Shown here piece by piece: positions 23,899 through 60,925 of a stretch of DNA of 64,000 bases (the stretch's first letter is position 1; every line of letters begins with the position of its first letter). The notes beneath the pieces are model-generated. The model had not been told where the DNA came from. It searched no databases and saw only the letters and a program-made list of their open reading frames with translations. The stretch spans positions 1-64,000 of the forward strand of contig VLTN01000064.1 of assembly GCA_008330645.1 (NCBI GenBank), written 5' to 3'. The position numbers and the translations under genes are program-made. Origin of the DNA: Cafeteria roenbergensis (lineage: Eukaryota; Sar; Bigyra; Bicosoecida; Cafeteriaceae).

Positions 23899-26800
23899 TC
23901 ATGTGCTGCGCGCCATTCGCAGCACGTGAGGCCGGGGCCGCAGGCCAGTGTGCTCGCGCAAGCAGTTGATGAGCTCCACCGGGTCGATCGGCTTCACCAG
24001 AATCGCAAGCGCCCCGCCCCGAAGCAAACTCCCCTGCTCAACCGCGTCCGTCGACCCCGTGGCGCCCAGCACCGGGATCGCCCGCACCCGCGCCGCCATC
24101 GCCGCCTCGCCCGACGACGCCAGCGAGGCCGCCAGCTCCCGGAGCTCGCGCAGCACGCCCTCGCCGTCCAGCTCCGGCATGCGGCTGTCCAGCAGCACCG
24201 CGTCCGGCCACCGCGCACCCCTCCCCAGCGAGGCCGCAGAAGCTGCTGCCGACTCGGACGCAGCTGCGGGCGAGCCCAGGGTGCCGGCCTCGGGGGCGGC
24301 GCTGCTGCGGACGAGGGCCTGGAGGGCGTCCATTGCGCGGCGGCCGTCCTCCATCTCGGCGACGGCGAAGCCCCAGGCGCGGAGGGCCCTGGCAACGCTG
24401 CGGCGTGCGACGGCCACGTCCTCGACCACCCAGACGCACGGCCCATCCGCAGCGATGCTGCACTCGTCAGCGTGGCTGCTTGTGGCGCCGCTGTCTGCGC
24501 CGGCTGTTCCGCGGCTGGACCTGCTTCCCAAGCCGGCCGCACGCCTGGCGGCACGTCTTGCGCTGCGTTCTGCCCGCGACATCGACCGCTCACTTGCGCG
24601 GCTCGGGCCTGACAAGAGCGCGCCGCGCTGCGATGAAATCGCGCTGCTCCCAGACGCCGCGAGCCTTCCAACATGGCTGGAGGGAAGGCTTGCCGCCGGG
24701 GCTTGAGAGCCCGTGGCGTCGAAGGCCGCTTCAGCCGAGGCTCGCCAAGCAGCGCCCCGGGGAACGGTTCTGGCCGCGGTGGGGCTCGAGCCGAACGCGG
24801 CCGAGCTGGCCGGCTCCCCAGTGGCCTCCTGGCCGCGGGCGGCGGTGCGCGCGGGCGCCGAGGCTTCAGCCGCATGGCCCCACACGCTCGACACAGCGCT
24901 GCGGGCTCCGTCCGGCCCGCCCGAGCCCCGCTCCTCCTGCCCTTGGTCTCGCGGGTCGTGCTCCAGCGTGTCGCGCTGTGACTCAAAGCGCGTTCGTTCC
25001 GCATCGCCGGCCCCGGCCCCGGCCCCGGCCCCAGCCCCCGCTGCCGCTCGCCATCCTGCCCCGTGCATGCCACCGGGGTCCGCTGGCTCGCGCAGCGAGC
25101 GGCTTGACAGGGGGTTGTCGGTGACGTCGCATTGACTGCCATCGGCCGAGCTCCCGGCGCGCGCAGGGCCCGACTCCGATGCGCCAGTTCCACGGAGGCC
25201 ATGCCCGCCCTCGCACCGGTGACTGGAAGCAGCAGCCCGCGGTGCGGGGCGCGCGCGCCCGGGGGGGTCCGCCCCCGAAGTGCTGCTCCCGCTGCTCCCG
25301 GAGTGCGCTGCGGCGGCCGCAACAGCCGCTGCCACGGCCACGGCGGGAGCAGGCGCAGCGCACTCCGTCCCCGCAGACGGCGTCACGGAAGACGTGTTGG
25401 CAACGACACAAGGCGCGGCCGCCTGCGTGGCTGAGAGGGCGTCGCTGGCGCCGCAGCCAGCCCCGGGGCGAGGTCCCGCATCTTCGGTGGGGAGGCGGGC
25501 AGAGCCGCTCTGCATGCTCGCGGCTGCGCCAACGGCTGGCTCTGCCGCAGCGCTCTTGCAGGAGGACGAAGCCACGCGCGCGGGGGGGGCTTGCAGCGGC
25601 ACGGGGCCGGTGAGCGACACCCGCTTGACCGCCCTCGCCGGGGCTCTGCCGCCGCCGCCGCCGCCGCCGCCGCCGCTGGCGGGCCTGCCGGTCGTGGCTT
25701 CGGCCGTGGCACCGTCACCACCTCCGCTCGTCGCGCCAGCGGCTGCGCGCGCCACGGCGTCAAGCTGACCCGCGGCCGACGCCGACCGCTCCCGCACTTG
25801 CCGGGGCCGCTGCGCGCCCTGGACCGATGCCTCGGCAGCTCCGGCACCAGCTCCAACACCTCCGCTGGCACCGCTCGCGGGCGGCCCGTGTGCCCGCGGC
25901 TGCCGTCCGTGCCACGACAGCGCCCTCGCAGCCGAGCTGCTCCGCCCGCCGTGAGCTCTGCCGGCAGTTCGGGCGCGGTGGTGCTTGACTGCGCTGCGCA
26001 CAGCGTGCTGGGAGGCGGTGCTCTCCGAGGGCAGGTCCGTTGAGACTCTCGGACGCGCCCACACCGGGATGCGCGCCGTGAAGAGCGTGCCCACGCCCAG
26101 CTTGCTCGCCAGGCTCACGTCCCCGCCCATCTGGTCCACCACGATGGCCCGCACCGTGGACAGCCCCAGCCCGCCCGCTGCCATGGACAGCATGCCGTTG
26201 CCCATGCGCAGCTGCTGGAAGGGCCGGAACAGCGTGTCCGCGCTCAGGCGCTCCTCCGCGATGCCGTGACCGTTGTCCAGCACCTCGATGACCAGCACCT
26301 TGCGCTCGTAGTCACCACAGTCCACTTGCGCAACGGCCGCCGCGATGCCGCTCGTCGACATGGACACCGTGCGGTGCCGCGACGGCCCTCGCCCGTGCAC
26401 CCGCGCCCCTTGCGCGAGGCCGACTTGGTGCCCGGCGGCGTTGGGCGCGATCTTCGCCCGACCGCGCGACGCCCCGCACAAGCCGCAAGGCTGCTCCCCG
26501 CTGCGTCCGAGTTCGCCCCCGCCCCCGGCAGAGCCGCTCCCTGCTGAGGGCTGCGTGGCCCACGCCCGGCGCTCGGAGCGCAAGCACGAGCAGCCCCCCC
26601 CCGCCGGGGCGCGGCACAGGATCCTTGACCTCAGCAGCTCGGGCGGCGACCTGGCGGGCTGGCTGTTGGGGAGGAGCGACGCAGCGCCCAGCACGAGCGA
26701 CACAGTCACTCGGCCGTTGCCCCCAAACGGGGCCACCTTGATGGCGTTGCTGAGGGCGTTGCCGACGACCGACATGATTCGGTCGACGTCCGCAAACACC

Positions 26801-29800
26801 TCAAAGTCCGCAACCGGATCTGCCAGCGTCGGGTCGTGGTCGAGAGCCACGGCATTGGCAGTGTGGACGAGGTGGTTGGGCGCCCAGCTGGGGTGCCCGA
26901 CTGACCCGCCTCCGCTCGAGTGGGCCATGCGCTGCAGCATTGACTCCTGCTCGGTGAAGCTGCTCTGATGGGCTCGCGACCTCTTCGCTGACAGTTTTCT
27001 GTGGAAAGATTTGCCGAGGGTGCCGCTGGGGTGAATCCGGCCGCTGCGGGCCTTGGAGCGAGGCGGCATTGACCGCCCCGTCACCCTGCTCCCGCTCCCG
27101 CTGGCACTGAAGCTGGCTCCCTCGCGAGCGGATCCCGATGCGCCGCCGTCACCGCCCATGCCCCGCTGGCCGCTCGCGCCAGCGGCCTCGTGAGGGCCGC
27201 CTGGAGCCCAGCTCGCCGCCGCCCCCGACCCGCCAACGATGCCCGCTGCCCCGTCGAGCGACGACTTGCCACCGCTGCTGAGGTTGGCCGTCTCAGCCGA
27301 GGCCAGTCCGTCGGCGGACCCGGCCCCGCCTCTTCCCGTGCCGGACACAACGCTGCTTGCCAAGGGCGTGGCAGCTGCCTTGGCCGCTTCAAGCGCTGAC
27401 AGAGGGGCCTTGGGCGCGGGGCGATCGGTGCCCGATGCCGCCGCCGGCTCCTGCCGGGCCGCCCTGGCACCGCGCTCGGTGCTCCGGTGCCTGCCAGCCT
27501 CCCGCCCCGCCCGGCGGCTCGACGGCGCCGCGCCGCGTTCGTGCGGAGCCGCTCTCGAGCTGGGGCCCGCAGCATCGGTCGCGCGGCCGGAGAGGGGGAG
27601 CGGCGCGACTGCGTGGCGCCTCACGTGGATGTCGGGCTCGCCCTCCGCTGACGCCGACGCCGACGCCACGCCGCCCGAGAGGCTCGAAGTGGGAGCCACC
27701 GACCCGGCGCGACCCCTCCAGGTGAACCTGCCGGCGCTCGCGGACCGCGCCTGGAACAGCCGGCCGAAGCACCCCACCGTGGGGCTGCGCCGAGCCTCGC
27801 TCTCCTCGGTGGTGAGGCGCAGCCCTCGCGGCAGCTCTGCCCACGGCCGGACGAACATCGGGTGCTCGTTGCTGATGAGGTTGCCTCGGCCGGTTTCGTC
27901 AATGAAGCCGGTCACGAACGGGTCAATGTCCGGCACGGAGTCAGCAGAGAGCCACGAGTCTTGCTCGGCGCGGCTCAGTGGGCTACTGGCCAGACTCTGG
28001 TCCGCGTGACCGAGCCCAGGCCGCGGCGCGGCTCCGTTGAAGTCCGACGCTGTGCGGTTCGCGCGGTAGAGCGCAGGGCTTGTCACCGCCCGATCGTCGT
28101 GGAACGTCCCGAAACCAGCCTCAGTGACGTCCCGGGGCGATGGCGGCACGATCACGGTCGGGTTCAGGCTGGTTCCGAGGCGGGGGGTTGTGCTGAGAGC
28201 CCGGGCGATGTCCCCGGCATGGCGGCTGGCCCACCCCGCCGCCGCCGCTGCGGCCGCCGCCGCCGCCGCAGCTGCTGCTGCCGGCGGCGTCAGCGAGTGC
28301 CGCTCAGCGCTCTCGAGGGCTGGGGGCAGCAGCTGGTCGGGCGGCCGGACACAGTCCTGGCCCGGAGACGCGCTGACCGACCCCCGCGCGCGCCCTCCCC
28401 CGTGGCCGGCTGGCGGCTCAAGCCCGACGATGACCGTTGGCCCGTGCGCTGGGGATCTGCTGGTGAGGTCGGGCTTGCCGGCGTACGACCGCATACCCGG
28501 TCCGCCCGAGGCGACGGCAGCAGGGCCCCGCACGCGCCCGCCCCGCCCCTCTGTGACACCGGCCGAAGACGCGACAGAGCTCGCATCCGCCGAGTCAGAC
28601 GCCGCGGCACCGACACCCACTGGCTCCGCCCCGTCTCCAGGCGTCTCAGAAGCGGCGTTCGCGCCGCCCATGCTTGCCACAACGGCAGAGCCCGACACCT
28701 CCGTCGAGCTGGTTGTGCCTCGGTGGTTCCCTCGCGCAGACAGGGACAGCCGGTGTGACGTGGGGCCCTCCACCCCCGAACGCGGCCCAGCAGCGGGCTG
28801 TCGCCCAGCCACGACGGACGTTGAAACGGTGACTTGTGCGCCTGCGCGCGCCAGCCTTGGCCGCCCCAGGGCGACGCCGGAGTCGCTTCCGCCGGCGACG
28901 GCCGAAGCATCACCCGCCGGCTCGCCAATCGGGGTGCCGGTGGCTCTGCGGCCGCGATGCCGCAGCCTTCCGCGGCTGCGCGCGTGGGGGGAGCTCTCCG
29001 ACAGCGGCGACGACCCCGGGCTGCAGATCCGGTCAAAGCCGGTTTCGTGCGGGCTCTGGAGCAGGGCAGCGTTGGAGTCTTGCGTCACGGTGGCGCGGTG
29101 CGCGGTGGAGTCGCTTGCTGCGCTGGACACGTGACTTGCCCCGCTCGACCCGTGCTGGACGGACGCGTCATGCCCAGCGACAGGCGACTGCCGCCCCCAG
29201 GCCGCAGCCGCAGCCGCAGCCGAAGAGGCCCTCCGGGGCGACCTCGAGCGCGAATGGGACGACGAGTCGCGATGCGACGAACGGCTCGCCGCACGCGACC
29301 CTGCGTCCTGGAACGCCCGCATGCCCAGCAGGACAGCCCGCACGCGCCGCAGCTGGGCCTCGTGCCGTAGAAGCGGCATCTTTGGCCGAGCAGCCGGCGC
29401 GGCAGGCAGAGCCAGCGCCAAGGCGCCGTGGCCGACCGAGCCAGCGTTGACGCTGGCCTCGGCATGTGACGCTGGCAGGGTGGCCGTCACCCCGCGAAAC
29501 CGCAGCTTCACGCGCTCCGCCCGGCACACCCCCGCGAACGACGACCGCAGCCGGCGCAGCTCCGACCCGGCCACGCGGCTCCAGCCCCACTCCACGCTGC
29601 GCGCCGCCCGCAGCGACGTGACCCGCTCGAACGTGAGCATGTCGTCCAGCTGCCGCTTCGCCGCCTCCACCGACGCGTGCAGGTCGCCCACCAGCTGCGG
29701 CGCCTCGGAGGGGTCGCCGTCGCCACGGATGATGCCGTCGAGGAGGGCGAGGGACAGGGCGGCGCCGTTGAGGGGCGAGCGCGCCTCGTGGGAGACGTAC

Positions 29801-31729
29801 CGGAGCGCCGAGTGCATGTGGTCGGCCGCCTTGCGGGCGTCTGCAGTGCGCTGCTGCGATATATGCGCCTGCGAGAAGAGGATCGCGGAGATGCCCGTGG
29901 CTATGATCATAGCCCCGCTCATCCACGCGTAGGTCACATGCAGCTGACCGGTGCGCACAAACGTGCGTATGCACTCGTCCGACTCGCAGCCCGTCGGCCA
30001 GTGCACCTCGCCCTGGAACTCGGAGAAATCGAACAGCGCAGGGGGGCAGGGCTCTGTCACGATGAAGGCCTCGTTAACGAGCACCATGATGATAGGCATG
30101 ATCATTGCGATGCACGCGGTCACCACCTCTGCCAGGAAGAGCGCTGTCTCGGGCGTGCCGTTCCAGCACACGCCGCTGCTGGCGCCGACGAGGCGAGACA
30201 GCCCGACCCGCGACCCAGGCGTCAGGCCACCTTGCGAGCCGGCGGACGGTGAGCTCTCCCTGTCAGTGGTCACCGACGCACGGCTGCCCAGGCCAGAGTC
30301 CACCTCGACTGACCCGCCTGGGGCGCCCTGCGACGCGCCGCGCGTTCCTCGTGGCTCCAGGGACGCCTGGGCCGTGCCAACAGAGCGGGAGGCTTGGTCG
30401 CCGCGTTGATGCGCGGACCGCGCAGTGGCGCTGCCAGAGGTCTGGACGACCGATGAGCCGCTGCCCGCGCCTCTGGACACCGCGTCGCCAGCGACCCAGG
30501 CCGACGGACGCGAGAGACCAGCCCTGCGCCTCGACCTCGAGCACGCCCGCCAGATGTCGCAGAACATCGCGGGGAAGATACACCAGCTGACCAGCAGCCC
30601 AACCCACAGCAGCACGAACGATGGGATGGTGGCGACGGGTGCGAGTCGCAGCTCCGCGGCGAACACGACTTGCGCAATGTAAATGGTCGCAAGCGCGAGC
30701 TGGGCCCACCGCAGAACCGTGACGGCAGTCATGGGCGGGAGCTGCACGCCCGTGCGCGCCCGAACCACGCGGCGGCAGTGGTCCGAGGCAGGGGTTGACC
30801 TTGGCACGAGCAGCTTGGGCGCCATGGCTTCTGCCGACGCGAGCGCCACGATGCAGGACATCACAAACACGGACATTCGCTCCGCTCCCATGACGTTGCA
30901 CTGGCGGGGAATGCTGAAGATGAACTGCGAGCTCGGGGCGCGTGTTGCGGATCAGGCGGGGAGGCGGCGTGGTGGGCGCGATGGGGGCGGTGGGGGGCGG
31001 GGAGCCTTCCGGCCGAAAGCCCAACCTGCCGAGAGCGCCTCGTCCTGCCGCACTGCCCGTGCGCCGGCTGGCTGAGCTCGGGCTGCTGTGAGCGATGCGT
31101 TTGCGAACTGGCCTTCGACTCACGACCGGCGATATGACGAGGTCTCTTCTGGAGACCAAGTGCAGCAAAGCCGCAGGAAGGACGGAGCAGGCGGAGCCAA
31201 GCACGACCCAGCGCGTCCTGCGGGTTGGGCGGAGCGCTTGAGAGGGCACACGTTGGCGATGCCGCGGGATGCCGCACGAGCAGAGCAAAACGGCAAGAAC
31301 GGCGCGCCCAGAAACTCACGCGCGCTGCGCCGACGAACGGCCGATCAGCCAGGAGGAGGACCATGCCTGGGTCACGACGACGAGGATCGTGACCGCCGCG
31401 CCAACCACTGCGGGCCAGATGTCCAAGCGGCTCTGGTAAAGCGAGGCAGCCACCATCGACCGCGTCGGCGTCCAGTTGCCGGGCAGCGTGTCGACGTGCT
31501 GCATGGCGAAGGCCAAGGGCGCGGCCTCCGTCACCACATACCGCGTCCTCGGCGAAGCGTGCGCAACCACCGGGGCCAGGAACGTGACGGCTAGCACGGC
31601 TCCCAGCAGCAAGGGGGACGCGTTGCGCCACAAGACGTGGCCGCACCCTGCGCTCGGGGCGTGGACCGGGTCGCCCTTGGGCTTTTGCGCCACGAGCACC
31701 GACGGCCATATCGGCACATTCGCTGCCAT
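23899..31729 (-). CDS. Hybrid sensor histidine kinase 1 (three exons, about 2,509 aa)
   Basis: Exons: 31320-31729, 31124-31217 and 23899-30924; introns 102 and 199 nt with GTGAGT donors and CAG acceptors. Exon 1 encodes two membrane segments around a loop with RYVVTEAAP and an NWT sequon. Exon 2 adds a segment beginning TRWVVLG. Exon 3 starts FIFSIPRQC and adds five more; a WPTGCESDEC loop precedes the last. The Arg-rich linker after segment six and the glycosylatable loop fit eight segments with a cytosolic kinase. H-box YVSHEARSPLNG (His ~547), N-box NALSNAIK (~1557), G1 DNGHGI (~1718), then LFRPFQQ and GGLGLST. The C-terminal receiver has the acidic pair in VVEDV, phosphoacceptor Asp in LLDSRMPELDG (~2414) and Lys in VKPID. 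Family role: ligand-driven autophosphorylation, then His-to-Asp transfer. About 1,000 low-complexity residues separate H-box and N-box. The tail after VKPIDPVEL differs from the other three copies. The ligand is unknown. Confidence 0.88.
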
Positions 31730-32224
31730 AGACGGGCAGGGGCGGGAGGCTGGTGGCAGCGCCGCAGGACCGGACGGCGGGTCCGCAGCGAGGCCGGTGT
31801 CGAGAACGCGTGCTTGTCTCCTGTTCAAGCTCTGCCGGAAGCATCGCAAGCGACACCGCTTCGCTCGCGGAGGCTTGGCGGGCGCTTGTGCTCCCGGAAG
31901 AGCACTGGCCTCGCCGGGGGATACTGCCGCTTGAGGAGCGCACTGCCGAGCTCAGCTGCCAGGCTTGGTCAGGTCGCGGTGTGAGCTGAAGTCGAGCTTG
32001 TGATCGGCGCGAGCGCAAACAAACAAAAAACTGCCGACAAAGCGCTCATTCTCGCTCGAATTGTTGCAGACCAGCAGTGCATGACACACAATCTCAGAAA
32101 TGACCGACCCGCCAGGCCGTGTCCCCACACCCCATGGCCCACGTCAGCTCCCCACAAAGCAAGCGAGGCGGTGTGCTCTGTCTCGCGGCGCGGCGGATGC
32201 CCGCAGAACATCGAACGGATCTTG
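31730..32224. other. Intergenic between histidine kinases 1 and 2
   Basis: It holds the 5' flank of kinase 1 and the 3' flank of kinase 2. A relatively AT-rich patch at about 32010-32100 is unusual for this window and may be promoter or 3'-processing sequence. Frames just upstream of 31729 stay open but fall outside the part conserved among the paralogues. Confidence 0.45.
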
Positions 32225-35200
32225 TCAGGGCCATCCGCCACCTCCTCGACGATGCGCGACGGCACGCGCGCCAGGCGGAAGCACGATGCGCGCCTCGCGC
32301 TCCAGCGCCAGCGCCAGCTCCACCGGGTCGATCGGCTTCACCAGAATCGCAAGCGCCCCGCCCCGAAGCAAACTCCCCTGCTCAACCGCGTCCGTCGACC
32401 CCGTGGCGCCCAGCACCGGGATCGCCCGCACCCGCGCCGCCATCGCCGCCTCGCCCGACGACGCCAGCGAGGCCGCCAGCTCCCGGAGCTCGCGCAGCAC
32501 GCCCTCGCCGTCCAGCTCCGGCATGCGGCTGTCCAGCAGCACCGCGTCCGGCCACCGCGCACCCCTCCCCAGCGAGGCCGCAGAAGCTGCTGCCGACTCG
32601 GACGCAGCTGCGGGCGAGCCGACGGTGCCGGCCTCGGGGGCGGCGCTGCTGCGGACGAGGGCCTGGAGGGCGTCCATTGCGCGGCGGCCGTCCTCCATCT
32701 CGGCGACGGCGAAGCCCCAGGCGCGGAGGGCCCTGGCGACGCTGCGGCGTGCGACGGCCACGTCCTCGACCACCCACACGCACGGGAAAGACGCGCAGGT
32801 CTTGGGCATGATTGCCTTGCCTGCCTGCGCTGCGTGCCCTCTCTGCCGAGCTGCCGCCTTTGCAGCGCGTCGCGCCGCACGCTGCTCTCTGGAGAGCCGC
32901 GCGGAGCCGCCAGAGCGCGTGATTGCATTCTCTGCCGTCTCTTCGTGGTGCAGAGCTGGTGAAGATGCCGTGGACGGGCGGTGCGGCGGTGAGGCAAGCT
33001 CGTGAAGTGGCGAGGTGACGTCCTCCAGCACCGTCTGTTGCGAGCTCTGACTGACGCCCCTTTGGCGATTGCAGCCCGCTTGGCAGGCCACGGGGGCAAG
33101 TGCAGCAGGTGCACCTACTAAGCCGCCTGCCGCCCGCCCGCTACTAGCCGTTGCAGCGTTGGCACTGCTGCCATTCGTGCTCTCAGTGGAGCTTGGCGAG
33201 ACGGGCTCCACCAGCAAACTGCTGCTGTCGCTTCTGCCATACAGCCAGGTGCCGGACCTCTGCGCGCGCGGCTGCCCGTCGTCCGCGGGTGCTGCATCTG
33301 AGCCGGTCCTCGCGGCCCAGGAAGCTGCCTGCCCGGCGACGTCACCTGCGCTGGAGGCAGACGGACTGGTGCGCTCGCCGCCACGGCTGCTGCCTGCGTC
33401 GCAGGCTGCTTGCCCAGCAGAGTCTCCGTATGCCTGGAGGTGCTCGCCCCACTGAGCCGCAACGAACTCGGCAGGCTCTCTGGCAATGCCCCAAGCCAAA
33501 TCGGCGTCAGACTCTGCGCCAGATGGCTGCTCTGACCACCCGCTCCGGTCGAAATTGTTGTCTGAGTGGACTCGGCGGGCCCACACCGGGACGCGCGCCG
33601 TGAAGAGCGTGCCCTCGCCCTCCTTGCTCGCCAGGCTCACGTCCCCGCCCATCTGGTCCACCACGATGGCCCGCACCGTGGACAGCCCCAGCCCTCCCGA
33701 CGCAGTCGACAGCATGCCGTCGCCCATGCGCAGCTGCTGGAAGGGCTGAAACAGCCCATCGGTCTCCAACCTGACCGGAGCGATGCCCTTACCGTTGTCC
33801 AGCACCTCGATGACCAGCACCCGCCTGACCACCTCAGACTGGCGCTGCACAGAACGGATGGAGTGCGCTCGCTCCGCACCAGATACTCCAGATGGGAATG
33901 CGGCCACGGATCGGCTCGACCCGAGGGTGTGGGCCGCGACGCTTCCGGTCCGTGTAGCAGCACTGTTGGGGGCCACTTGGACAGACGCCCCTGAGGACCA
34001 GCAGCCCCCCGCCGACAGCGAAGCGCAGCCCTGAGCCGCTCGGCGCGGGGCTCGAACTGGCTTGCCCTTGAGCAGGTTGGCTTGCGCAACCAGGAGGGAC
34101 ACCGTCACGCGTCCCTCGCCGTCAGCGGGAGCGATTTTGATGGCGTTGCTCATGGCGTTTCCAATGACAGACATGATGCGGTCGATGTCAGCGAACACCT
34201 CGTATGCGCTCACAGGCTCGCCAAAGACCTTAAACTCAGCCCGGGGCAGCGAGGGGTGAACCCGCCTGGCGGCCTGCCGTGCCAAGGCGGGGTGCCTTGG
34301 CACAGTTCGCGACTTTGGGCCGGGCCGAGAGACGCCACGACTTCTTGGGCTGAAGGGGCTTCCGTCAGTTGGCTCAGGCGTCCCCTGGTCGGCTCCTCGG
34401 CGAGGCGATCGTGCCTCTCTGAACGGCTCAAGCGCGCGCCCTGCGCTGAGGGATGACCGAATCTCCCGTCCTGCCTTGCGCTTCGACTGGACCGCGAGCA
34501 ATGGTGGCGTGCCTTTGCTGATCGCCTGCGCGGAGGACCCCGGGTCCCCGCCGGGCGGCCTAGTCCAGGCAGCCGACGCCGGGCTGCTTGAGCTGAGAGT
34601 CACACTCTGAACCGCTGTCACGGTGTTGTGTGGACTCGAAGCCGAAGGTCCCTGGACGACGTCTCCAACAGCATCGACTGCCGTGAACTCGACAGAAGTG
34701 CAGCCCGGCATGAAGGCAGCGAAGCGGAGAAACGCCACCTGGCTCAGCGGTCGAGGGGCTCGGTCGGACGATGAATGCAGACTCGAAACCGAGCCGGCTG
34801 GTCCCGAGAGACCGCGAAACCGCAGCTTCACGTGCTCTGCCCGGCACACCCCCGCGAACGATGACCGCAGGCGGCGCAGCTCCGATCCTGCAAGACGAAC
34901 CCAGCTCCATGGCACGCCCTTGGCTGCTCGCAGCGACGTGACCCGCTCGAACGTGAGCATGTCGTCCAGCTGCCGCTTCGCCGCCTCCACCGACGCGTGC
35001 AGGTCGCCCACCAGCTGCGGAGAGTCAGACCGGTTGCCGAAGCCTCGGATGATGTCGTCCAACAGCGACAGCGACAGCGCGGCGCCGTTGAGGGGCGAGC
35101 GCGTCTCGTGGGACACGTACCGCAGCGCGCACTGCATCTGCGCGGCCGCTTTGGCGGAATCCTTCGCCCTCTTGAACGCGGTGGTGGCCTGGGCAAACAC

Positions 35201-37092: not shown

Positions 37093-37387
37093 TCTTCCCA
37101 GCCGCGCAAGCAGGAGTGTCTGCGAGGCAACTTATGGGCAGCGTTTGCGACGTGGGCATTTGAGAGAAGTGTGGCTCTGCCTGCATCGTGGGTTGGCTGC
37201 TTGTTTCAGGCAATGCTGCGCCTTCGAAATGCCGAGTTGCTTGCCAGGCTCGGGTGCTCCTGAGAGTCACAGGGGCAAAGGCCTTGTGCTGCTGCCATGA
37301 GCAGGTGTGCATGGCAAGCGCGCGCCAAGCGGCAAACAGCGCCCAGCATGGTTGGGCTTGCTCTCGCCGAGCGAACGTCGCAAAGAG
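37093..37387. other. Short intergenic between histidine kinases 2 and 3
   Basis: About 295 bp separate the start codon of kinase 2 from the stop of kinase 3. It must hold both the promoter and the upstream gene's 3' end. No motif was recognised. Confidence 0.4.
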
Positions 37388-40300: not shown

Positions 40301-42725
40301 ATCACCTCCGCTCCGCCCAGCGGCGGTGTGCAGCTGCGACCCGTTCCCCGCAGAGCTACCCGACTCCGCGCCGCTACGAATGTCAGCTGCTGTGACGGCG
40401 CTATCGTCATTGGTCGGCTCCACCGCGCCCTCCACCTTGCCCAGCTTGACGTGCCGCAGCAGCGACAGCTGGCCCGAAACGAAGCTGGACTCGCGGATGA
40501 TGGAGCTCCCGAGCCCCCCGCAAGCAGGCCGCGACGATACCCCGCGAAACCGCAGCTTCACGCGCTCCGCCCGGCACACCCCCGCGAACGACGACCGCAG
40601 CCGGCGCAGCTCCGACCCGGCCACGCGGCTCCAGCCCCACTCCACGCTGCGCGCCGCCCGCAGCGACGTGACCCGCTCGAACGTGAGCATGTCGTCCAGC
40701 TGCCGCTTCGCCGCCTCCACCGACGCGTGCAGGTCGCCCACCAGCTGCGGCGCCTCGGAGGGGTCGCCGTCGCCACGGATGATGCCGTCGAGGAGGGCGA
40801 GGGACAGGGCGGCGCCGTTGAGGGGCGAGCGCGCCTCGTGGGAGACGTAGCAGAGCGCCGAGTGCATGTGGTCGGCCGCCTTGCGCGCGTCCTCTGCGCG
40901 CTCCTTGGCCACGGTGGCCTGGCCGTACATGATGGCCAGGGCACAGGAAGACGCGACCACGACTGAAGCAATCCATGTGGCGTACACGGTGAGCTCCAGG
41001 GAGGCTATGATGCTTTCGCGGCAGTCAGCAGAGGTGCAGCCGTGCGGCCAGTGGTCGAAACGCCTAGCTATCTCAGCAACGTTGCCGAACGTGGTCAGGC
41101 AGCTTCCATGGCCGTTGTGGCCGTGGGCAAGGAAAATGACGATGGCAACGTTGGGGGCCACGATGCCCACGGCGAGAGCGACCAGCTGCGCGAAGAAAGT
41201 TGCAGAGGCGGGCGTGCAAGAGGGGCGGCAAAACTCCCCTGCCGCAAACTCGGTGGACGCCTCAGACTGGCCCGAAGACGTGTACTCGCCCGAGATGCTC
41301 GTGCCCCTCGCGGTGCTGACGGCGCTACGACTCCGCGCGCGGCTGGCACCTGCGTGCAAGGTGCCGCCGGCCACCAAATCCGTCGCGAGCGCGACGGTCG
41401 CTCCAGGCGTGCTGCTTGCCGTCGACGCCGGGGAGACCGAGCTCCGCCGCGTTTGGCTCAGCTGGTCAAGGGTGGCTACCACAAACATGGCCGTCACCGA
41501 TGCCATTGTCGCCCAGTAGACGAACAGCGCGCCGGCCAAGCCCAGCGAGTTTGCTCCTGTTCCGACGGCTCCCGCCACTGCGGCCAGGAAGCAGGCCACC
41601 ATGCCGGCTTGCACCACGCGCAGAATCAGGAAGCCGTCCACGGAGGGCAGCTGGATCATGCACACCCTTTGACACGCGGCTCGAACCGAGTCCGAAAAGG
41701 GTTGCTGCTTGGGGCGCAGGACGTCGCTGGACAGCGTCTCGGCGAAGCCGAGCGACACCACGACGACAACCATCATCACGCAAAGGGCGGGGAGCTCGAT
41801 GAATGTGCAGCAGTGGTGGCCGATGGAGAAGATCTCCTGCGGGAGCGCGGGGCCGGGCGGGAGCGAGCGCAGCAGGCGCTCGAGTTGCTCGTTGGAGGGC
41901 ACGCCGCGCAGGCGGGGACAGGAGCCTGCCCCGCCACGCCGCCGTATGCCCCGTGGCTCGGGCATCCCGCGCACGGGTCCACCTGGCAGGGACGCGAGGG
42001 CAAGCGGGCTGGCGAACGGCGCGCCAGCGCTCACGAGCGTCGGCACGAGCATTGTTGGCGAACCGAGCGAATGGGTCGCAAACGCCGGCAGGACGCCCAG
42101 AAACACCCCCAAAGCGACGCCCAGGGACCTGCGCGCGGGTGGCAATGGCGGGGCGGGGAATCGTGAGCTGAGCACTCGCGCAAGCCTCGCTGCCGGGAGG
42201 ACTCCAGCGCCGGCCCGGGCTTCGGAGGAAACAGGCCGGCGGCTCGGGGGCTGGACGCGGCGGCCAGCTCAACGAAAGCGCGCATTCCGGCAGCTCGAGC
42301 CCGAGCCCAAGGGGAGGGCGAGTGGCTCACGCTCGGCGGACTCGCAGCTTCACCAGTCCGCTTCCGGAGATCGCCAGGGCGGCCACGAGCAAGGCGGCCG
42401 CGAAGCCCGCCGCTGCGGGCACTTGCGCGGCCGACTGCAAGTCCTCGACTCGCGCCTTGGTCCGCAGCAGGGAGGCCGAGCCGTTGGCCGCCACGAGGCC
42501 CCGGATGTGCTCGTTCGCCGCCATCATGGGCGGGCCCGGCGTCACGAGGTAGGCGGCTTCGGTGAGCCTGGCCAGAAAGGGGGCCGCGAGAGCGACCGCG
42601 CTCATCAACACAACGCCGAAGCTCGCGAGCGGAGAGCCGAGGCACCGCCCGCCCCAATGGCCATTTCTGTCACCAGCGGCGCTCGCACTTTGCCCCACCG
42701 CAACGGCAGTGGACCGCCAAGGCAT
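37388..42725 (-). CDS. Hybrid sensor histidine kinase 3 (three exons, about 1,645 aa)
   Basis: Exons: 42331-42725, 42035-42128 and 37388-41836; introns 202 and 198 nt with GTGAGC donors. The start ATG 42725 (MPWRSTAVAVGQ) gives an exon 1 of the same size as in the paralogues; an upstream in-frame extension is not conserved. The exon 1 loop carries AAYLVTPGPP and an NGS sequon. Intron 2 happens to be stop-free and in frame, so exons 2 and 3 look fused, but the splice sites align exactly with the other copies (exon 3 starts EIFSIGHHCC, compare FIFSIPRQC in copy 1). The Cys loop is WPHGCTSADC. H-box His ~496 (YVSHEARSPLNG), N-box NALSNAIK (~976), G1 DNGRGI (~1089) and receiver Asp ~1549 are intact. 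It shares the stretch REERAMRRAAKAAARAASQ and the residues up to the receiver with copy 4. Confidence 0.87.
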
Positions 42726-43117
42726 GCCCCTTGGGGTCCCAAGCCGGCGGGGCTGGCAAAAACACGCAGGCAGTGCCGCTGCTGTCTCGGACTCGATGAT
42801 GACACCGTCGCGGTCGGGCTCTGCCACCGGCTGCCCGCACAGTGCGGAGCGACACGGCCCAGCAGGAACGCTCTCTCCCAGATGCAGGGATGCACGCGCG
42901 GGAGGGCCGCAGCCCCAGGCCCGTGCTCTGCTCGCAGCCATGGGCAGCAAGGGCGAAGCGGGGGTGGAGGGGATTGCGCGCAATGCTTGCGTGGTCGAGC
43001 GAAGGTGCTTGCAGAGTCTTCGGCCCCATGCACTCAGACGCACGGTTCCGCGCTGGCACGCAACACACATGACGGCTCGGATGCAGCCCGTACCGCGCAA
43101 GGCGGTCTCCCTTAGAC
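42726..43117. other. Intergenic between histidine kinases 3 and 4
   Basis: It is open in frame with exon 1 of kinase 3, but the predicted peptide is Arg/Cys/Pro-rich and matches nothing in the other copies. It is best read as promoter and 5' leader, plus the 3' end of kinase 4. Confidence 0.45.
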
Positions 43118-46100
43118 TCATTGGTCTGCGTCATGCGCGACAAGGACCGCCTGGGCTGCCGGAGGCAGGACAATGCGCGCTTCGTGCTCCAGCGCCAGCG
43201 CCAGCTCCACCGGGTCGATCGGCTTCACCAGAATCGCAAGCGCCCCGCCCCGAAGCAAACTCCCCTGCTCAACCGCGTCCGTCGACCCCGTGGCGCCCAG
43301 CACCGGGATCGCCCGCACCCGCGCCGCCATCGCCGCCTCGCCCGACGACGCCAGCGAGGCCGCCAGCTCCCGGAGCTCGCGCAGCACGCCCTCGCCGTCC
43401 AGCTCCGGCATGCGGCTGTCCAGCAGCACCGCGTCCGGCCACCGCGCAGTCCCCCCCAGCGAGCCCGCAGATGACGCCGACGTCGCTGCCGCAACCACGG
43501 GCGAGCCGACGGTGCCGGCCTCGGGGGCGGCGCTGCTGCGGACAAGGGCCTGGAGGGCGTCCATTGCGCGGCGGCCGTCCTCCATCTCGGCGACGGCGAA
43601 GCCCCAGGCGCGGAGGGCCCTGGCGACGCTGCGGCGTGCGACGGCCACGTCCTCGACCACCCAGACGCAGGGCCGCGGCGCGTCGTCAGAGGCGGACTGC
43701 GAGCACACGCTGTCGGCGGCGGACCCCGCGGACGCCTGCGACGCGGCTCTGGCCGCCGCCTTGGCCGCTCGCCGCATCGCCCGCTCCTCCCTGGTCGACG
43801 AGGCGACCGCTACCGGAGGAGACATCGGGGACAGCTCAGCCGCTGATCCTGCCGAACGCAGCGAAGCAGCCGCTGCAGCGCGCCTCGCCAGCCGCGAAGG
43901 CTGGACGCGCGGCCGGACGCTGCCACCAGCCTCGGTGCTATGGGCGGCCGCGCTCCCTGAAGGCGTTTCGTCGGCACGGCGCGCTGGGAGGCCCACGGGG
44001 CTGTGGCCCGTGGCACTCACCGCCGATTCGGTTATATCCGGCTCGCTCTCGAGGGAGCCGAGGCCAGCTGCGCTGCCGGACGTGGCGGACCGCTTTCCGC
44101 GCATGACTGCAGTCTGCTGCAATCCGGCCGCTGACGCTGCCCCCATGGTCGTGGCGTCCGAGACGCCGTCGCGCGCTGCGCGGCGGCCCTGCCATGACCT
44201 CGAGCGCTCTGGCACCGCCTTGGGTGACCGCGGGGATATTGCCATCGGCAGCGGGAGCGGCGGCGACTTGCGGCTCGACTGCGCAACAGGCCTCGACTGC
44301 GCCGCGTTGGACCCCGCGCGCGCACGGTCCTTTGAGGCGGCTCGGCCCCGGGCGCCAGCGTGGCGCAGCGACGCCCTCGATCGAGCTCGCGCCCTCGTGC
44401 CTGCGACTGAGGGGATGGAGGTCGATGCCGGATCGTCGGGCGTCACAGGCCGCGCCCACACCGGGATGCGCGCCGTGAAGAGCGTGCCCACGCCCAGCTT
44501 GCTCGCCAGGCTCACGTCCCCGCCCATCTGGTCCACCACGATGGCCCGCACCGTGGACAGCCCCAGCCCGCCCGCGGCCATGGATAGCATGCCGTCGCCC
44601 ATGCGCAGCTGCTGGAAGGGCCGGAACAGCGTGTCCGCGCTCAGGCGCTCCTCCGCGATGCCCCTGCCGTTGTCCAGCACCTCGATGACCAGCACCTTGC
44701 GCTCGTACTTGTGGCGGCCGATCCCAGCGCCCGGCATGCCATCACGAGGCCGCCCCTCGCCCAGCTGCGACCAGTCAGACAGCTGCGACGCGCCCCCGGC
44801 CACGGTGCTGTCCCCGCCGCCAACACCCCTGGCGTCCGACCCGTGGAGCGACCACCGCAGGCTCTCCAGCCTGTGGCGGCGAAACAATCCGCCGTAATCG
44901 CTGGAGCCCTGAGCCTCAGCTCCGTCCACAGACCCCACCGTGCCGCTGCCGCTGCCGCTGCCGCTGCCGGCCGCCGCGCCAGCCCGCCCCGGCCCCCACG
45001 TTGCAGAGGCGACCTTGCTGTCAGCGCCCCGCTGCCCAGCGTCGTCCACCGGCCGCACGCTCGTCTTGCTGCCGTGGACGCGAAGCCTGCTGAACGACGC
45101 ACCGGCCGCAGCTGGGGCACCACGCTTGCCGCCCAAGCCAGCGTCCGCACCGACGATTGTGGACGTCAGCACGGGACCCTCGCCCCGACCAATGGCCCCA
45201 GGCCCGAAAGCCGGCCGCAGTGACCCCGACACTGCCATTGGCAGGGCATGTCGCTCAACGGATACATGCGCCAGCGACCGCGCCTGCCGACGGGCACCCC
45301 GTGCGCGCAGACAGCAACGCCAGCGGCAGAGCCACCCCCACCAGGTGCTCTGCCGGCGCGCGCGGTCCTCGCCGGCGCCGCCGCTGGGCGGCTCTGCCGT
45401 CCTGCTTGGCAGCTGGGGCCCCGACGACCGACACGTCATCGGGTCCGCCAGGGAACCAGCCGCTCCCTCAGGTCGGCATCGTCTGGTGGCAGCCTGCTTG
45501 GGCAGAGCCGCGCGGGGCATGGACAAGGTCTGGCTCCGCGCACGCGGCTTTCGGTGCCTTCGTGGGGTCAGACTCAGCTCCAGCACCCCGGACAGCGTCC
45601 CATCCCCGATCCTGCCGGACATGTCCGTGCGGCGTGCTCTGCCAGCTCTGCCCAGGACCTTGAGCGGTCCAGGGCACCACTTCGACTGCAGCTCAGGCGG
45701 GGCCCTGGCCGGCTCGGAATTCGGAAGGATCGAAGCCGGAGCGACGATGAGCGACACTGTGACCTGGCCCATGCCTGCACCGGGGACCACCTTGATGGCG
45801 TTGCTGAGGGCGTTTCCGATGACCGACATGATGCGATCGATGTCCACAAACACCTCAAACGAGGCAGCCGGCAGAGCCGCAAGCCCCGTGACTCCCGTCG
45901 CGCTGGCCGCAGCAGCCGCCGGGCTGACGTCAGCGGTCATGACCTTGCTGCCCGCGCTCTGCGCGCCACCCAGCGCCGCCACGGCCCTTGCTAGGGCGCC
46001 AGGGGTCACGAACGGGGCCATCCCTGCTCGCACCGCGACGGCCTCGCCGCTAGCGCCAACAACAGGCTCTGCCAGATGACGTCTGAAGCTCTGCCCATCG

Positions 46101-49100
46101 TCCCACGCAACGGCAGAGCCCGGCCTCCAGATGCCAGGCGCAGCCAGCGGGTGAGCCGTCGACAGCTGGTGCGACGCGCACCCCACACGCAACGTGCCTG
46201 CCATGGCCTGCTCGTCCGTCGGCAGAGCAAACTGGGTCAGCATTGGGTCGCACGGCACGGCAACGGTGTCGCTGCACTGCGACGCCAGGGCATCTGACCG
46301 GTACGTGATGTCCTGATGCTGGGAATCAGCTGACAGCTGACGATGGCCTTGTCCAGCGTGGTGGCCATGCGCTGTCGGGTAGGAAGGATTGGAAGGATTG
46401 GAAGGATTGGAAGGACGGGGAGGATGTGGGGGGCTCGACGTCGCGACGGAGCTCGATACCTCCGTGGGATCCGCTGCCGCGTAGCGACCCAGCGCGGCAG
46501 AGCCGGTAGAAGGTCCTATGGCAGAGCCGGTAGAAGGTCCTATGGCAGAGCCGATAGGAGGTCCTATGGCAGAGCCAGTCCCAGATGCGACGGCCGATCC
46601 GCCGGGCAGCGCGGACGGAGCCTGCGCGGCGGTGCCGCTGCCATCGCGCTGGGCGGCTGCGAGCAGATAGCCGGAGGGGCGGCGCTCGCTCGGCGCGCCC
46701 GGTGGCTGCCCAGCGACGAGACCCGCGGTGGGGGCGCTGGCGCCGTCGCTCGCAGGCTGCACGTACGGGCCGCCTTCGGCGTCACCGCGCCGTGCAGAGC
46801 CACTTTGCTCCGAGCCGGCCAGGCCTTCCTGGCTGCGGGAGACTGCTGCTGCTGCTGACCCCGCGTCTTGGGCGCGGCGTGGAAACGCTGACGGGGACCC
46901 CGGTGGTGGTGGCGGCTCGCTCAGCGCCCCCTCTGCGGCGAGCTGCTTGGCCGCGACAGGCGCCCCCTCCGCCCCCCACGCTCCTCCCAGCGGAAGGTTC
47001 CAGGAGCGCTCCTGCATCTCCGCCGCACTCTCCGCCCCACGGCCGCCCGCGGTCTGGTCACAGCCCTCCTGTGGCGGCGGCGGGGCGCTCGCTAGCAGCG
47101 ACGCCACGAAGGGCTGGCTCTGCCACCCCACCTGCAGGCCGGCGCGAAAGGTTGCTGATGGGGTGAAGATGTCCCCTGACTGGGTCATGATGGCCCCGGG
47201 AGGGACCACCATCGGGTCGTGCCAGTGATGCCTGTCAGCCGAGTGCCCGCTGCTGTGAAGCCTTCTCAAGTTGCGGGCCACCTGCCCGGCTGGAATGATG
47301 CCGGAGTGACTGCCCTCCCCCAGAAAAGAGCCGGTCATCGACCCGCTGCTTGTGTTGAGGGCAGAGCTTCCCGGCGATCGGTTCATTGTTCCGCCGGCGG
47401 CAGTGACTCCGTTCGCGCCGCCTGCCGCTGCAGCGTTGGCAGCAGCTGCTGCAAGGCGGATATCCCGGTCACTGTTGAGTCCCCGGCGGGTCACGTCCCA
47501 GTCGTCGGTCCATCTGGTCTCACAAGAGCCGCTGCGCGGCGACGGCTGCCCCGGCTCGTGCATCCTTCCAGCCAGCACGAAGGGCCCTCGCCGGAACGGC
47601 GAAACGTATGGCCGAGCCGTGCCTCCCCCGTCCGCGTCCCTCTGGGCAGACCGGTCTCTGGGCAGCGCCGCTGCCACGCCGCTCACCGGCGGGTCGTCGG
47701 CTGATTCTTCGCTAGAGCTGCTGGTGGCTCTGCCGGCACCACCAGAGGCTCTGCCAGAACCGCCCGGTTTCCCCTTCGCAACTCCATGACGAGGCCTGGC
47801 AGAGCTGCCTCGAGCTCTGCCGGACCCAGTGAGCTGATGCGCCGGCGACAGGGCACACCCGCCAGCCTCGTCCACGCTCAGCCTGGTGACGTCATCCATA
47901 TAGCTCTGCTGGGACACGGAAGGATTCTCTGTGGATCCTTCCGCTTCCTGGCTATGGGGAAGGACTTGAGCCCTCGTCGCTTGGCCAGCCGCGGAGTCGC
48001 TCTGCCAGGCACTTCGCCGGATATTGGGCGCGCTCGCCCCGTGGGTGGCTCGTCCCAGCGGAGTGTTGGTCCGATTTGCAGTTTCACCAGCAGCCGCATC
48101 GCCTTGCGAGGGCAGAGCATGTTGCACGGCGGCAAAAACGGCTCTGCCAGACTGAGCTCTGCCAGGACCGGATGCCAGAGTGGAGCGCCGAGCGCTGCTG
48201 ACAGGCGCCGGTGCTGTTGGAAGAGTTGCTGCTGCTGCTTCTGCTTCTGCTTCTGCTGCTGCTGCTACGGTTGCAGTTGCGGTTGCAGTTGCGGTTGAAG
48301 GTTTTGCGCTGGAGCCGTTCTCGCCAGAGCGGGGGCCGTCGCTGAGCAGAGCCCCACGGTCCCCGCTGCGGTCGCCGAGCGACGCGCCATCAAGGAGAGC
48401 AGCGCGCCCGATGGCTCTGCCGGTCCCGGGGCCGGGGCTGCCGTTGCACCAGGAGACGCCCTCCTTGCCTGACCGACTTGCGATTGACGAAGCGTCGGTG
48501 TGACCCGCCAGCTCGGTGTCGACGAGGTGAGCGGAAGTGAGCGAAGCGCAGACGCTCTCGCGCGGCGTAACGCCCCGATCCGGGGAGACGGAGGTGCGAT
48601 TGCCTCGTGATAAACCCGGGACCGAGGCATGACCAGCGCGGGTCCGATAGGTGTCGGATCTCGCTCCAGCCCTGGCAGACATGCCACAAGCTGCTCCTGC
48701 GGTCGAGCTTTCCGCTAGCGGGCTTTCTGCGGGCGGGCTGACTGCTAGCGGGCTTTCTGCTAGCGGGCTGACTGCTAGCGGGTTTTCGCCGGAGACAGGT
48801 GACTCCGCACACGCTGCAGAGCAATCCGCCGCGCGGTGCTCTGCCACCGCCGAGCGAGCGCGGGGCCTGGCCACGAGCGCCACGGATGCTCTGCCCGAGG
48901 GACTCGGAATGATTGCGATGGAGGCACCCTTGTCGCTGGGCGCGAAGTGCGATGACACAGTGTCGCCCGCAAGGTCCCACCCGGCAGAGCCGTCCATGAC
49001 AGCCGTCGTCCAGTTGGCCAGATGCGCGACGAGATCGGAGTCGCTCTGAATGCCGCGAAACCGCAGCTTCACGCGCTCCGCCCGGCACACCCCCGCGAAC

Positions 49101-51416
49101 GACGACCGCAGCCGGCGCAGCTCCGACCCGGCCACGCGGCTCCAGCCCCACGGAACGCCCTTGGCTGCTCGCAGCGACGTGACCCGCTCGAACGTGAGCA
49201 TGTCGTCCAGCTGCCGCTTCGCCGCCTCCATCGACGCGTGCAGGTCGCCCACCAGCTGCGGCGCCTCGGAGGGGTCGCCGTCGCCACGGATGATGCCGTC
49301 GAGGAGGGCGAGGGACAGGGCGGCGCCGTTGAGGGGCGAGCGCGCCTCGTGGGAGACGTACCGGAGCGCCGAGTGCATGTGGTCGGCCGCCTTGCGGGCG
49401 TCTGCAGTGCGCTGCCTCACAATGTCTGCTTGCGCAAAGAGAATGATCACGATGCATGTGATCACCATCACGGCGGTGCTCATCCAGGCGTACCGGACGG
49501 CGAACTGGGCAGTTGCGGCGAGGCTCCCGATGCACTCGGGAGAGCTGCAGCCGGTGGGCCAGGCCATGTCTGGGACTGGCTCGTGCAGATTAAACAAGAA
49601 CGTGGGGCAGCCGTCGTAGTGCATGATCGCCTGGCCCAGGGATGCCGCCAACGATGGGGCAGTGGAGCCGATCACGATGGCAGCGATGGTGGTGAAAATC
49701 GTTGCCAGATTGGTCTTCCTGCTGAGTCCCCCGCACCGTGTGCAGCCCACTGGGCGGTGCATGGCAGTCGCTGCGTATTCGCCCATCGTAGAATGGCTTC
49801 GAACAGACTCCTCAGCTTGCGACTCGGAGCTGCTCTCGGCAGGCGCAAGCGAAGCGCCCGCGTTCGCCACGCCACGCCACGCGATGCAACGGTCAGTGAC
49901 GAAGACGACGATGACGAAGATGAAGGCCGTCAACGCAACCCAGTAGAAGAGAGCCACAGGAAGCATGCCAGCGAGGCTGCCGGAGAAGGCGACGCCGCCA
50001 ATGACCTGGAAACAAAAGCCCAGGAACACGGCGAGCTGCAGGAACCTCAGCACCAGCAGCGAGTTCGCCGGGGGCAGCGCAATGCCCAGGCACACCTTGG
50101 CAAGGCGACGCAGGAGCGAGGAAAACGGCTGCTTCGACGCCTGAAGCCCGAACGGCGTCAGGAGTTCCGTGCAGCCCAGAGTCACCAGGATGGAACCAAG
50201 AAACTCTGTGAACCACGAGAGGCCGATGAAGGAGCAGCTACCAGACACGCCCTTCGTCAATGACTGCGCGGCACGGTGGGTGGGGGTTGCGGGGCGAGAT
50301 TGGGTGGGGGAGGCGGAAGACGGGGGCGAGTCGGAGTCAGCGGACAGGCGGGGCAGGAGGCCGGTCGAGAGGCGGGGCGGGCTGATGGGCTCGGGCTCTG
50401 AGCGAGGCGTGTCGGCCGCAACTTGGCAGGCCTACTGGCTCCGGCAGCCAGCCGCTGGCTCCCTGCTGCCGCTGTCCGAGCCACCGAGCCACGGGAAGCA
50501 AGTGCTCGGCACGCGCAGCGTCCCGGGCGAGGCATTCGCGAGGCGCTGGGCGCGACGTGATCGCGGGGAGGCTGCGGTTGCTCACGAACGAGGGCACCAG
50601 GAACGAGCTCCAGGCTCCGGCCCGCGAGAGCAGGCGCGGGAGCGAGACGATGAGGTTGCCCAGCACGACCCAGCGCGCCCTGCGAGCAAGGAGGCGGCAC
50701 ACCCGGGGCCAAAGCGTTGCGAGCACGGCGAGCTGGAGGCGAGTGCACCTTCGCCTTTGACCTTGCATCCGGCCACCGCTGCGAGGCCGCGCGCGCGCCT
50801 CGCCACGGCAAAGGAGGCAGGCACCTCGGCAGTGACTCCGGACAGCTCCGGAGGCCGCCGGTGAGGCGGGCAGCGGGGGCCGGGCAAGGGGAAGCCGGAA
50901 GCGCAAGCAGTAACGCCCGGCGCAAGCCAGCGCTGGTCCGCGCTTGCTCGGGGGCCGCAGGTGGCCCGCAGCGCCTGCAGATCAGCGCGGAGCTCACGCC
51001 CTCGACACCTTGCCGTTCACCAGTTTGGAGGAAGCCGCGAACTGCGCGGTCACCAGCACCAAGGCGGTGATTGAAGTCGCGTCAGCGGCGGCGAGCGCCG
51101 CTTCCGTCGTCGCAAGGCCGGTGAGCGATGTTCGGAACACAGAGGCCGACAAGTTGCCGCGGACGGACTGCAGGAACCGCGTTGCGACTGCAACGGGGGG
51201 CTGGTCCACCACGAGGTACCGGGACCGCGTGACCTTTGCGGCAACTGGGGCCAGTAATGCCACTGTCACAAGCAGGCCGACAAGAATGGCGTTGAGCCTG
51301 CGCCACGCCACGCGCCAGCACGACACCCCCACGCTGGCGGGCGCCCGAGCCCCTAGTCTGCGGCCGTTCACCTGGAGGGTGGCCCATCCCTGGGCGGCCC
51401 CGCCCAGGGATTGCAT
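43118..51416 (-). CDS. Hybrid sensor histidine kinase 4 (three exons, about 2,552 aa)
   Basis: Exons: 50998-51416, 50586-50679 and 43118-50263; introns 318 and 322 nt with GTGAGC donors. Exon 1 starts at ATG 51416 and has two membrane segments around SRYLVVDQPPVAVA and an NLS sequon. Exon 2 reads ARWVVLGNLIVSLPRLL. Exon 3 has no ATG before or within its first membrane segments, so the protein needs the upstream exons; this is direct support for the splice model. The Cys loop is WPTGCSSPEC. H-box His ~476, N-box ~1658, G1 DNGRGI ~2037, receiver Asp ~2456. The linker between H-box and N-box is about 1,180 residues and that between N-box and G1 about 380, the longest of the four. It contains PLAES-type, GSAIGPST and SNP repeats and is dense in the GGCAGAGC word. 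Its H-box block mixes copy-1-like and copy-2-like sequence. Confidence 0.88.
46381..46416. repeat. 9-bp minisatellite in kinase 4 linker
   Basis: Four tandem copies of a unit like GGAAGGATT encode Ser-Asn-Pro repeats on the minus strand, inside the disordered linker. Confidence 0.85.
46494..46577. repeat. 24-bp minisatellite in kinase 4 linker
   Basis: About three and a half copies of a unit starting GGCAGAGCCGGTAGAAGG encode GSAIGPST repeats on the minus strand. Each copy carries the over-represented GGCAGAGC word. Confidence 0.9.
48713..48787. repeat. 15-bp minisatellite in kinase 4 linker
   Basis: About five copies of a unit like GCTAGCGGGCTTTCT encode PLAES and PLAVS repeats on the minus strand. 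It lies in the linker just after the H-box region. Confidence 0.9.
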
Positions 51417-60565: not shown

Positions 60566-60925
60566 GGGCCGGGCTGCGCGCCCGCCAGCCGACGGCGCGA
60601 GGCGTTGCGGGCGCAGGAACACAGCTTCACCCGAGGGAGGGGAGGGGAAAGCAGGCTCGCGATAGACTCACGGCTTTTCGCTCATGCCTGGCCCGTGGCT
60701 GGCGTCGCGGGAACTCGCGCCGGGGCTGCGCCGCGCGCGGGAGGGTGGTGCGCCACCGGCGTTGTTGGCACGCGTGGAGTGGCTCTGCTGGCCCACACTC
60801 GGCCGGCGCGCGCCCCCGCGACCTCACGAGAGTCAGCACAGGGCACATCGTCCGGCGGCACCAAGCCAGATCGCCACCGGTGTTGGCAGCGGCCGATCCG
60901 GCGCCGACTCAGCACCCCTACAAGA
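60566..60925. promoter_or_regulatory. Divergent intergenic region, likely bidirectional promoter
   Basis: About 360 bp lie between the minus-strand SAM-protein start and the plus-strand HD-domain gene start. It probably holds both promoters; no defined motif was seen. Confidence 0.45.

What the first reader, a model, noticed from the sequence alone, without database searches (positions are those of the whole stretch)
23899..51416. Four tandem sensor kinases with overlooked 5' exons
Directly upstream of each long kinase frame lies a short frame with two membrane segments. In all four cases its stop codon TGA sits inside a splice donor (GC followed by GTGAGC or GTGAGT). In all four, a CAG acceptor downstream opens a 94-nt exon of related sequence (A-x-RWVVLG or similar) ending at another GTGAG donor. 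A second acceptor then opens the kinase exon in the correct phase. Equal exon lengths, equal phases (2 then 0) and gap-free alignment across the junctions in four copies are hard to get by chance. Copy 4's third exon has no usable ATG of its own. Ordinary gene calling would split each gene into a small membrane protein plus a truncated kinase.
Basis: seen in the sequence. Interest (0 to 1): 0.85.

Follow-up and report, generated by a model that had tools for sequence, protein, structure and literature searches.

The report
Spliced tandem sensor kinases in Cafeteria

Summary
The exons are very probably real and the splicing is ordinary. The window lies in a 36.3-Mb, G+C-rich eukaryotic genome whose numbers match Cafeteria strain BVI. 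Four tandem hybrid histidine kinases on the minus strand each have exon 1, a 94-nt exon 2 and a long kinase exon, phases 2 then 0, with GTGAG donors and GCAG acceptors. Of 26 relatives elsewhere in the genome, six share the exon 1 donor and exon 2 (four through exon 3), nine keep intron 1 with exons 2 and 3 fused, four on contig C28 read all in one frame, seven are unresolved. The close relatives' spliced proteins align through both junctions to the C28 frame; the window copies align to C28 only weakly. The in-donor TGA is automatic for any phase-2 GTGAG donor. 'Overlooked' could not be tested. More notable: synonymous sites are saturated in the sensors (pS 0.62-0.72) but almost unchanged in the receiver's second half (0-0.014), and DNA similarity is confined to four islands. 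Gene conversion of the signalling module, with sensors diverging, explains this best; the C28 array shows the same for its histidine domain, the C40 array does not.

The parts
31320..31729 (-). Copy 1 exon 1 (from first ATG), phase-2 donor GC|GTGAGT
31124..31217 (-). Copy 1 exon 2, 94 nt (TRWVVLG...), acceptor GCAG, donor GTGAGT
23899..30924 (-). Copy 1 exon 3: further membrane segments, HisKA, HATPase, receiver
36689..37092 (-). Copy 2 exon 1, donor GC|GTGAGT
36297..36390 (-). Copy 2 exon 2, 94 nt, donor GTGAGC
32225..36181 (-). Copy 2 exon 3 (kinase exon)
42331..42725 (-). Copy 3 exon 1, donor GC|GTGAGC; the frame is open further upstream, so the start codon is unsure
42035..42128 (-). Copy 3 exon 2, 94 nt, donor GTGAGC
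37388..41836 (-). Copy 3 exon 3 (kinase exon); the preceding intron is open and 198 nt, so readable if retained
50998..51416 (-). Copy 4 exon 1, donor GC|GTGAGC
50586..50679 (-). Copy 4 exon 2, 94 nt, donor GTGAGC
43118..50263 (-). Copy 4 exon 3 (kinase exon), no ATG before 49966
29492..29833 (-). Histidine-domain (DHp) island of copy 1; counterparts 34812-35153, 40542-40883, 49053-49394; 84-98% nt identity in the six pairwise hits
26048..26299 (-). ATPase (CA) island of copy 1; counterparts near 33571-33821, 38839-39094, 44449-44704; 86-98% nt identity
23972..24441 (-). Receiver island of copy 1; counterparts 32316-32785, 37461-37930, 43203-43672; 95-99% nt identity, second half pS 0-0.014

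Best explanation
These are four tandem genes for membrane-bound hybrid histidine kinases (about eight membrane segments, then histidine domain, ATPase and receiver) of a bicosoecid flagellate. Each pre-mRNA is spliced at two ordinary GT-AG introns, joining exon 1, exon 2 (one membrane segment) and exon 3 (the remaining segments plus kinase and receiver). Supported by comparison: exon order, junctions and phases. Inferred: a signal acts on the fast-evolving sensor, the histidine autophosphorylates, and phosphate moves to the receiver and on to unknown partners. Also inferred (about 0.8 likely): the array arose by local duplication, and gene conversion homogenises the signalling islands while sensors and inserts diverge. 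The stated confidence is for the exon structure.
For: Splice sites and phases in 4 of 4 copies; shared 94-nt length beyond shuffles; codon-position pattern. Of the 26 relatives outside the window for which a locus was held: 6 have the phase-2 exon 1 donor and a matching exon 2 (L013, L015, L016, L018, L021, L023; exon 2 identical in protein in L016 and L021), 4 of them with an in-frame exon 3 acceptor (L015, L016, L018, L023); 9 have intron 1 in the same phase with exons 2 and 3 in one frame (L022, L024, L025, L026, L028, L031, L035, L036, L038, acceptor picked by eye among candidates); 4 on contig C28 read through all parts in one frame (L029, L030, L032, L033). A profile of the four close relatives (spliced) aligns with the uninterrupted C28 profile over 261 columns through both junctions (probability 92.9, E 3.8e-7). 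Mitochondrial carrier genes of this genome use the same signals: 8 of 12 fragment pairs gave a frame-consistent GTGAG/GCAG solution, 3 of the 8 with more than one possible acceptor; 4 gave none. HisKA, HATPase and Response_reg are over Pfam cut-offs in 4 of 4. Homogenisation: pS 0.62-0.72 in exons 1+2 and sensor against 0.006-0.29 (histidine domain), 0.06-0.23 (ATPase), 0.05-0.10 (receiver first half), 0-0.014 (second half); DNA similarity in four islands; the four copies are one well-supported group in both sensor and histidine-domain trees of 22 rows (18 of the 26 relatives used), with different but weakly supported inner branching.
Against: No transcript was seen. Direct alignment of window sensors to C28 is weak: 67 columns at the end of the sensor, probability 12.5, E 0.0023, not reaching exons 1 and 2; window to close relatives is significant only over the last 56 columns (E 1.6e-7). 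The link across the junctions is therefore through the close relatives and the shared intron places. Seven of 26 relatives are unresolved. N-box pS is 0.29-0.56, and copy 2 is less homogenised in histidine domain and ATPase. The C40 array shows no homogenisation (pS 0.73-0.76).
Confidence: 0.9

Rival explanations
1. Separate genes: each short frame is an independent small membrane protein ending at the TGA, and the kinase starts within exon 3.
For: The short frames do end in TGA, and copies 1 and 2 have ATGs near the start of exon 3 (30891, 36148).
Against: Copy 4 has no usable ATG there. Relatives encode the parts in one frame. The intron places and phases recur in relatives.
Confidence: 0.05
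2. The near-identical signalling islands reflect recent duplication followed by replacement of the sensors from elsewhere (domain swap), not gene conversion.
For: It would also give identical kinases with divergent sensors, as measured.
Against: The four sensors form one group with strong support and share the 94-nt exon 2. Most of the spacer sequence between the islands is also unalignable at the DNA level, which a swap of the sensor alone does not explain.
Confidence: 0.12
3. The islands are alike because of selection on protein and codon usage alone.
For: They are catalytic domains with high third-position G+C.
Against: The histidine domain is saturated at synonymous sites in the C40 array (pS 0.73-0.76), and the listed receivers outside the window are at most 48% identical in protein.
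Confidence: 0.05

Closest known systems
Eukaryotic hybrid histidine kinases (as in slime moulds, fungi and plants; recalled)
   Same: Membrane region, HisKA, HATPase and receiver in one chain.
   Different: The sensor has no Pfam match above cut-off in copies 3 and 4. Inserts of 204-1066, 87-351 and 259-537 residues lie between histidine domain, N-box, ATPase and receiver.
Cafeteria burkhardae histidine kinases raised in stationary phase (PMC7852580, passages)
   Same: Probably the same species; histidine kinase and receiver domains are enriched among genes raised in stationary phase.
   Different: The passages report domain enrichment; I saw no individual genes, so these four are not shown to be among them.
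Tandem receptors under partial gene conversion, such as TLR1/TLR6 (PMC2077338) and clustered protocadherins (PMC1852091); both seen only in the search listing
   Same: One part of neighbouring receptors is homogenised by gene conversion while other parts diverge (details recalled).
   Different: Vertebrate receptors, not protist two-component kinases; here the homogenised DNA lies in four separate islands.

Membership tests
Hybrid histidine kinase | HisKA domain with phospho-acceptor His | tested here: met
   HisKA over cut-off in 4 of 4; SHEARSPL or SHETRSPL in 4 of 4; role of the motif recalled
Hybrid histidine kinase | HATPase domain | tested here: met
   PF02518 over cut-off in 4 of 4, profile positions 36-109 of 111
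Hybrid histidine kinase | Receiver domain with phospho-acceptor Asp | tested here: met
   PF00072 over cut-off in 4 of 4; LLDSRMP and VKP in 4 of 4; roles recalled
Hybrid histidine kinase | Autophosphorylation and phosphotransfer | not testable with these tools
   needs purified protein
Spliceosomal (GT-AG) introns | Consensus donors and acceptors with preserved reading frame | tested here: met
   8 of 8 introns; same signals in 8 of 12 carrier-gene fragment pairs
Spliceosomal (GT-AG) introns | Homologues with the intron absent and the exons fused | tested here: met
   intron 1 absent in 4 and intron 2 absent in 13 of the 19 resolved relatives; alignment across both junctions shown for close relatives against C28, not directly for the window copies
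Spliceosomal (GT-AG) introns | Junction-spanning transcripts | not testable with these tools
   no reads held
Known sensor-domain families | Pfam match in the membrane region | tested here: not met
   only hits below cut-off in copy 3 (DUF6535 E=0.072, PMT_4TMC E=0.14), none in copy 4, at E up to 1; none in the four kinase frames at 0.001

The most novel reading that the evidence does not exclude
An array-based sensor repertoire in a predatory flagellate: gene conversion confined to short signalling islands keeps all receptors of an array wired to the same phosphorelay, while sensors and long inserts within the catalytic core diverge freely, so new specificities can be tried without rewiring the output. 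A second array (C28) does the same with a histidine domain that seems to have lost its phospho-acceptor His.
Probability: 0.35. Interest if true: 0.55.

Novelty: new member of a known kind. Interest (0 to 1): 0.3.

Why it matters
The exon model gives fuller N-termini for a family of flagellate sensor kinases, useful for expression or ligand work on a marine bacterivore. The island-wise homogenisation, if confirmed in other strains, would be a clear protist case of signalling domains evolving in concert while sensors diversify.

Tried and rejected
Viral contigs: no confirmed relative of copy 2. Blind profile ranking of exon-2 models: not decisive and partly unfavourable. Structure prediction from copy 4 exon 3 with four rows: mean pLDDT 50.5, too poor for a fold search, so none was run. 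PDB sequence search with the copy 3 frame: three entries, named as histidine kinases or a receiver domain of one, E 2.4e-4 to 1e-3. That the long core inserts are introns: not shown and not excluded. After the histidine domain only 2 of 4 copies have a GT at the border, while all four have an AG just before the N-box, in a Glu codon; third-position G+C is often but not always raised. Papers, held library only: 'histidine kinase' + 'concerted evolution' + 'sensor domain' gave none; 'hybrid histidine kinase' + 'gene conversion' + 'tandem' gave two Borrelia papers, seen as listing; any two of 'Cafeteria', 'histidine kinase', 'bicosoecid' gave 58 papers, 15 listed, of which I looked at passages of four (PMC7852580, PMC5447177, PMC6972860, PMC8547959); those of PMC5447177 and PMC8547959 were not used. 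In one search loci on the minus strand were read in the wrong orientation; one search corrected this. In one search a 51-nt 100% match of copies 2 and 3 is an artefact of overlapping input. In one search, L029 and L033 are recent near-copies (sensor pS 0.25).

Unresolved relatives: L014 (no exon 2 found by the scan), L017 (frame break, not scanned), L019 and L020 (no fitting acceptor), L027 (acceptor, no donor in the locus), L034 and L037 (not scanned). Four further matches had no locus.
Full report
Setting. The window is positions 1-64000 of contig C64 in a genome of 36,303,456 bases in 167 contigs; G+C is 67-76% per 4 kb of the window. The published Cafeteria BVI assembly has 170 contigs, 36,327,047 bp, 70.1% G+C and N50 460,467 bp (PMC6972860, passages); contig C26 here is exactly 460,467 bases. 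I take it to be that strain, from matching numbers, not from a sequence comparison. That cultured strains of this kind are now called C. burkhardae comes from PMC7852580 (passages); BVI itself was not named in what I saw there.

The observation. Each of the four long minus-strand frames holds HisKA, HATPase and receiver domains above Pfam cut-offs. The exon model is as reported: exon 1 ends in phase 2 at GC|GTGAG(T/C), a 94-nt exon 2 follows a GCAG acceptor and ends in phase 0 at GTGAG(T/C), and exon 3 opens at an in-frame GCAG. In shuffles a 94-nt exon arises in under 1% of cases per copy, though an exon of some suitable length arises in 12-22%. Exon 2 has a coding-like codon-position pattern that the introns lack. 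The stop codon inside the donor adds nothing, because a phase-2 GTGAG donor always reads xxG TGA G.

The comparative test. A search with the histidine domain found 34 matches in the genome: four in the window, 26 others with loci, four without. Of the 26, six have the phase-2 donor and an exon 2 of 82-88 nt with GTGAG donor and GCAG acceptor; four of these continue into an in-frame exon 3, while L013 and L021 gave no in-frame acceptor, their frames being broken downstream. For L015 two donors and two acceptors were possible and I chose by eye. Nine have intron 1 in the same phase but exons 2 and 3 in one open frame. Four on contig C28 read the equivalents of all three exons in a single frame. 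Seven are unresolved or were not scanned (listed under tried and rejected). A profile of the four complete close relatives aligns with the C28 profile over 261 columns, through both junctions (probability 92.9, E 3.8e-7). Against this, the window sensors align to C28 only over 67 columns near the end (probability 12.5), and to the close relatives significantly only over 56 columns there; and a blind ranking of exon-2 candidates did not single out the model. Carrier genes of this genome use the same splice signals in 8 of 12 fragment pairs tried.

Is it overlooked? The published annotation used BRAKER trained with transcripts and reports 1.67-1.89 introns per gene. I had no access to the gene models, so the claim is open.

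What the proteins are. Hydropathy gives eight membrane peaks in the spliced copy 3; at the same threshold fewer (about five to seven) stand out in the others, where the copy 1 input was cut within the first segment. Then come histidine domain, N-box, ATPase and receiver. The sensor of copies 3 and 4 has no Pfam family. Inserts of 204-1066 residues lie between histidine domain and N-box, 87-351 between N-box and ATPase, 259-537 between ATPase and receiver. The N-box and other motifs were assigned by eye from recalled consensus. A structure model was too poor to use.

Homogenised signalling, divergent sensing. Between copies, synonymous differences are saturated in exons 1+2 and sensor (pS 0.62-0.72), but are 0.006-0.29 in the histidine domain, 0.29-0.56 in the short N-box, 0.06-0.23 in the ATPase, 0.05-0.10 in the receiver's first half and 0-0.014 in its second half. 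At blastn E 1e-5 or better, DNA similarity appears in four islands of 69-645 nt and their edges: between copies 1 and 4 the histidine island runs about 100 nt into the last membrane segment, and between copies 3 and 4 the receiver island runs about 120 nt into the spacer. The rest of sensors, introns and spacers gave no match. Receivers elsewhere in the genome, as listed, are at most 48% identical in protein. The four copies form one group in both trees. This fits local duplication with gene conversion of the islands. In the C28 array, sensors of L029, L030 and L032 are saturated (pS 0.67-0.69) and the histidine domains nearly identical (0.03-0.08); the C40 array shows no such effect (0.73-0.76), and C22 is intermediate (0.26 against 0.55).

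Function. By domain content these are two-component receptors; ligand and partners are unknown. Histidine kinase domains are enriched among C. burkhardae genes raised in stationary phase (PMC7852580), which suggests, but does not show, a role in sensing prey or starvation.

Verdict. The splicing itself is ordinary. The domain-wise homogenisation is the part worth following.

Noticed in passing
window 23972-24441, 32316-32785, 37461-37930, 43203-43672 and the histidine-domain and ATPase islands: Signalling islands nearly identical between copies whose sensors, introns and most spacers are saturated or unalignable; best explained by gene conversion.
   Followed up: yes
L029, L030, L032, L033 (contig C28): A second tandem array whose histidine-domain motif reads SMRSRGPL where the window copies have SHEARSPL or SHETRSPL, so the phospho-acceptor His seems lost in all four, with near-identical domains and divergent sensors.
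   Followed up: partly
window exon 3 of all four copies: Very long, often low-complexity inserts split the kinase core (up to 1066 residues between histidine domain and N-box); that some are introns is not excluded.
   Followed up: partly
L013/L014 and L016/L017/L021: Copies sharing long identical translated stretches on different contigs or places, with frame breaks; could be alleles, recent duplicates or assembly errors.
   Followed up: no
window 41837-42034: Copy 3 intron 2 is 198 nt and open in frame with exons 2 and 3, so retention would add 66 residues without a stop.
   Followed up: no
window 8632-14223 (-) and 57278-60622 (-): Open frames with a protein kinase domain and a SAM domain respectively.
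   Followed up: no
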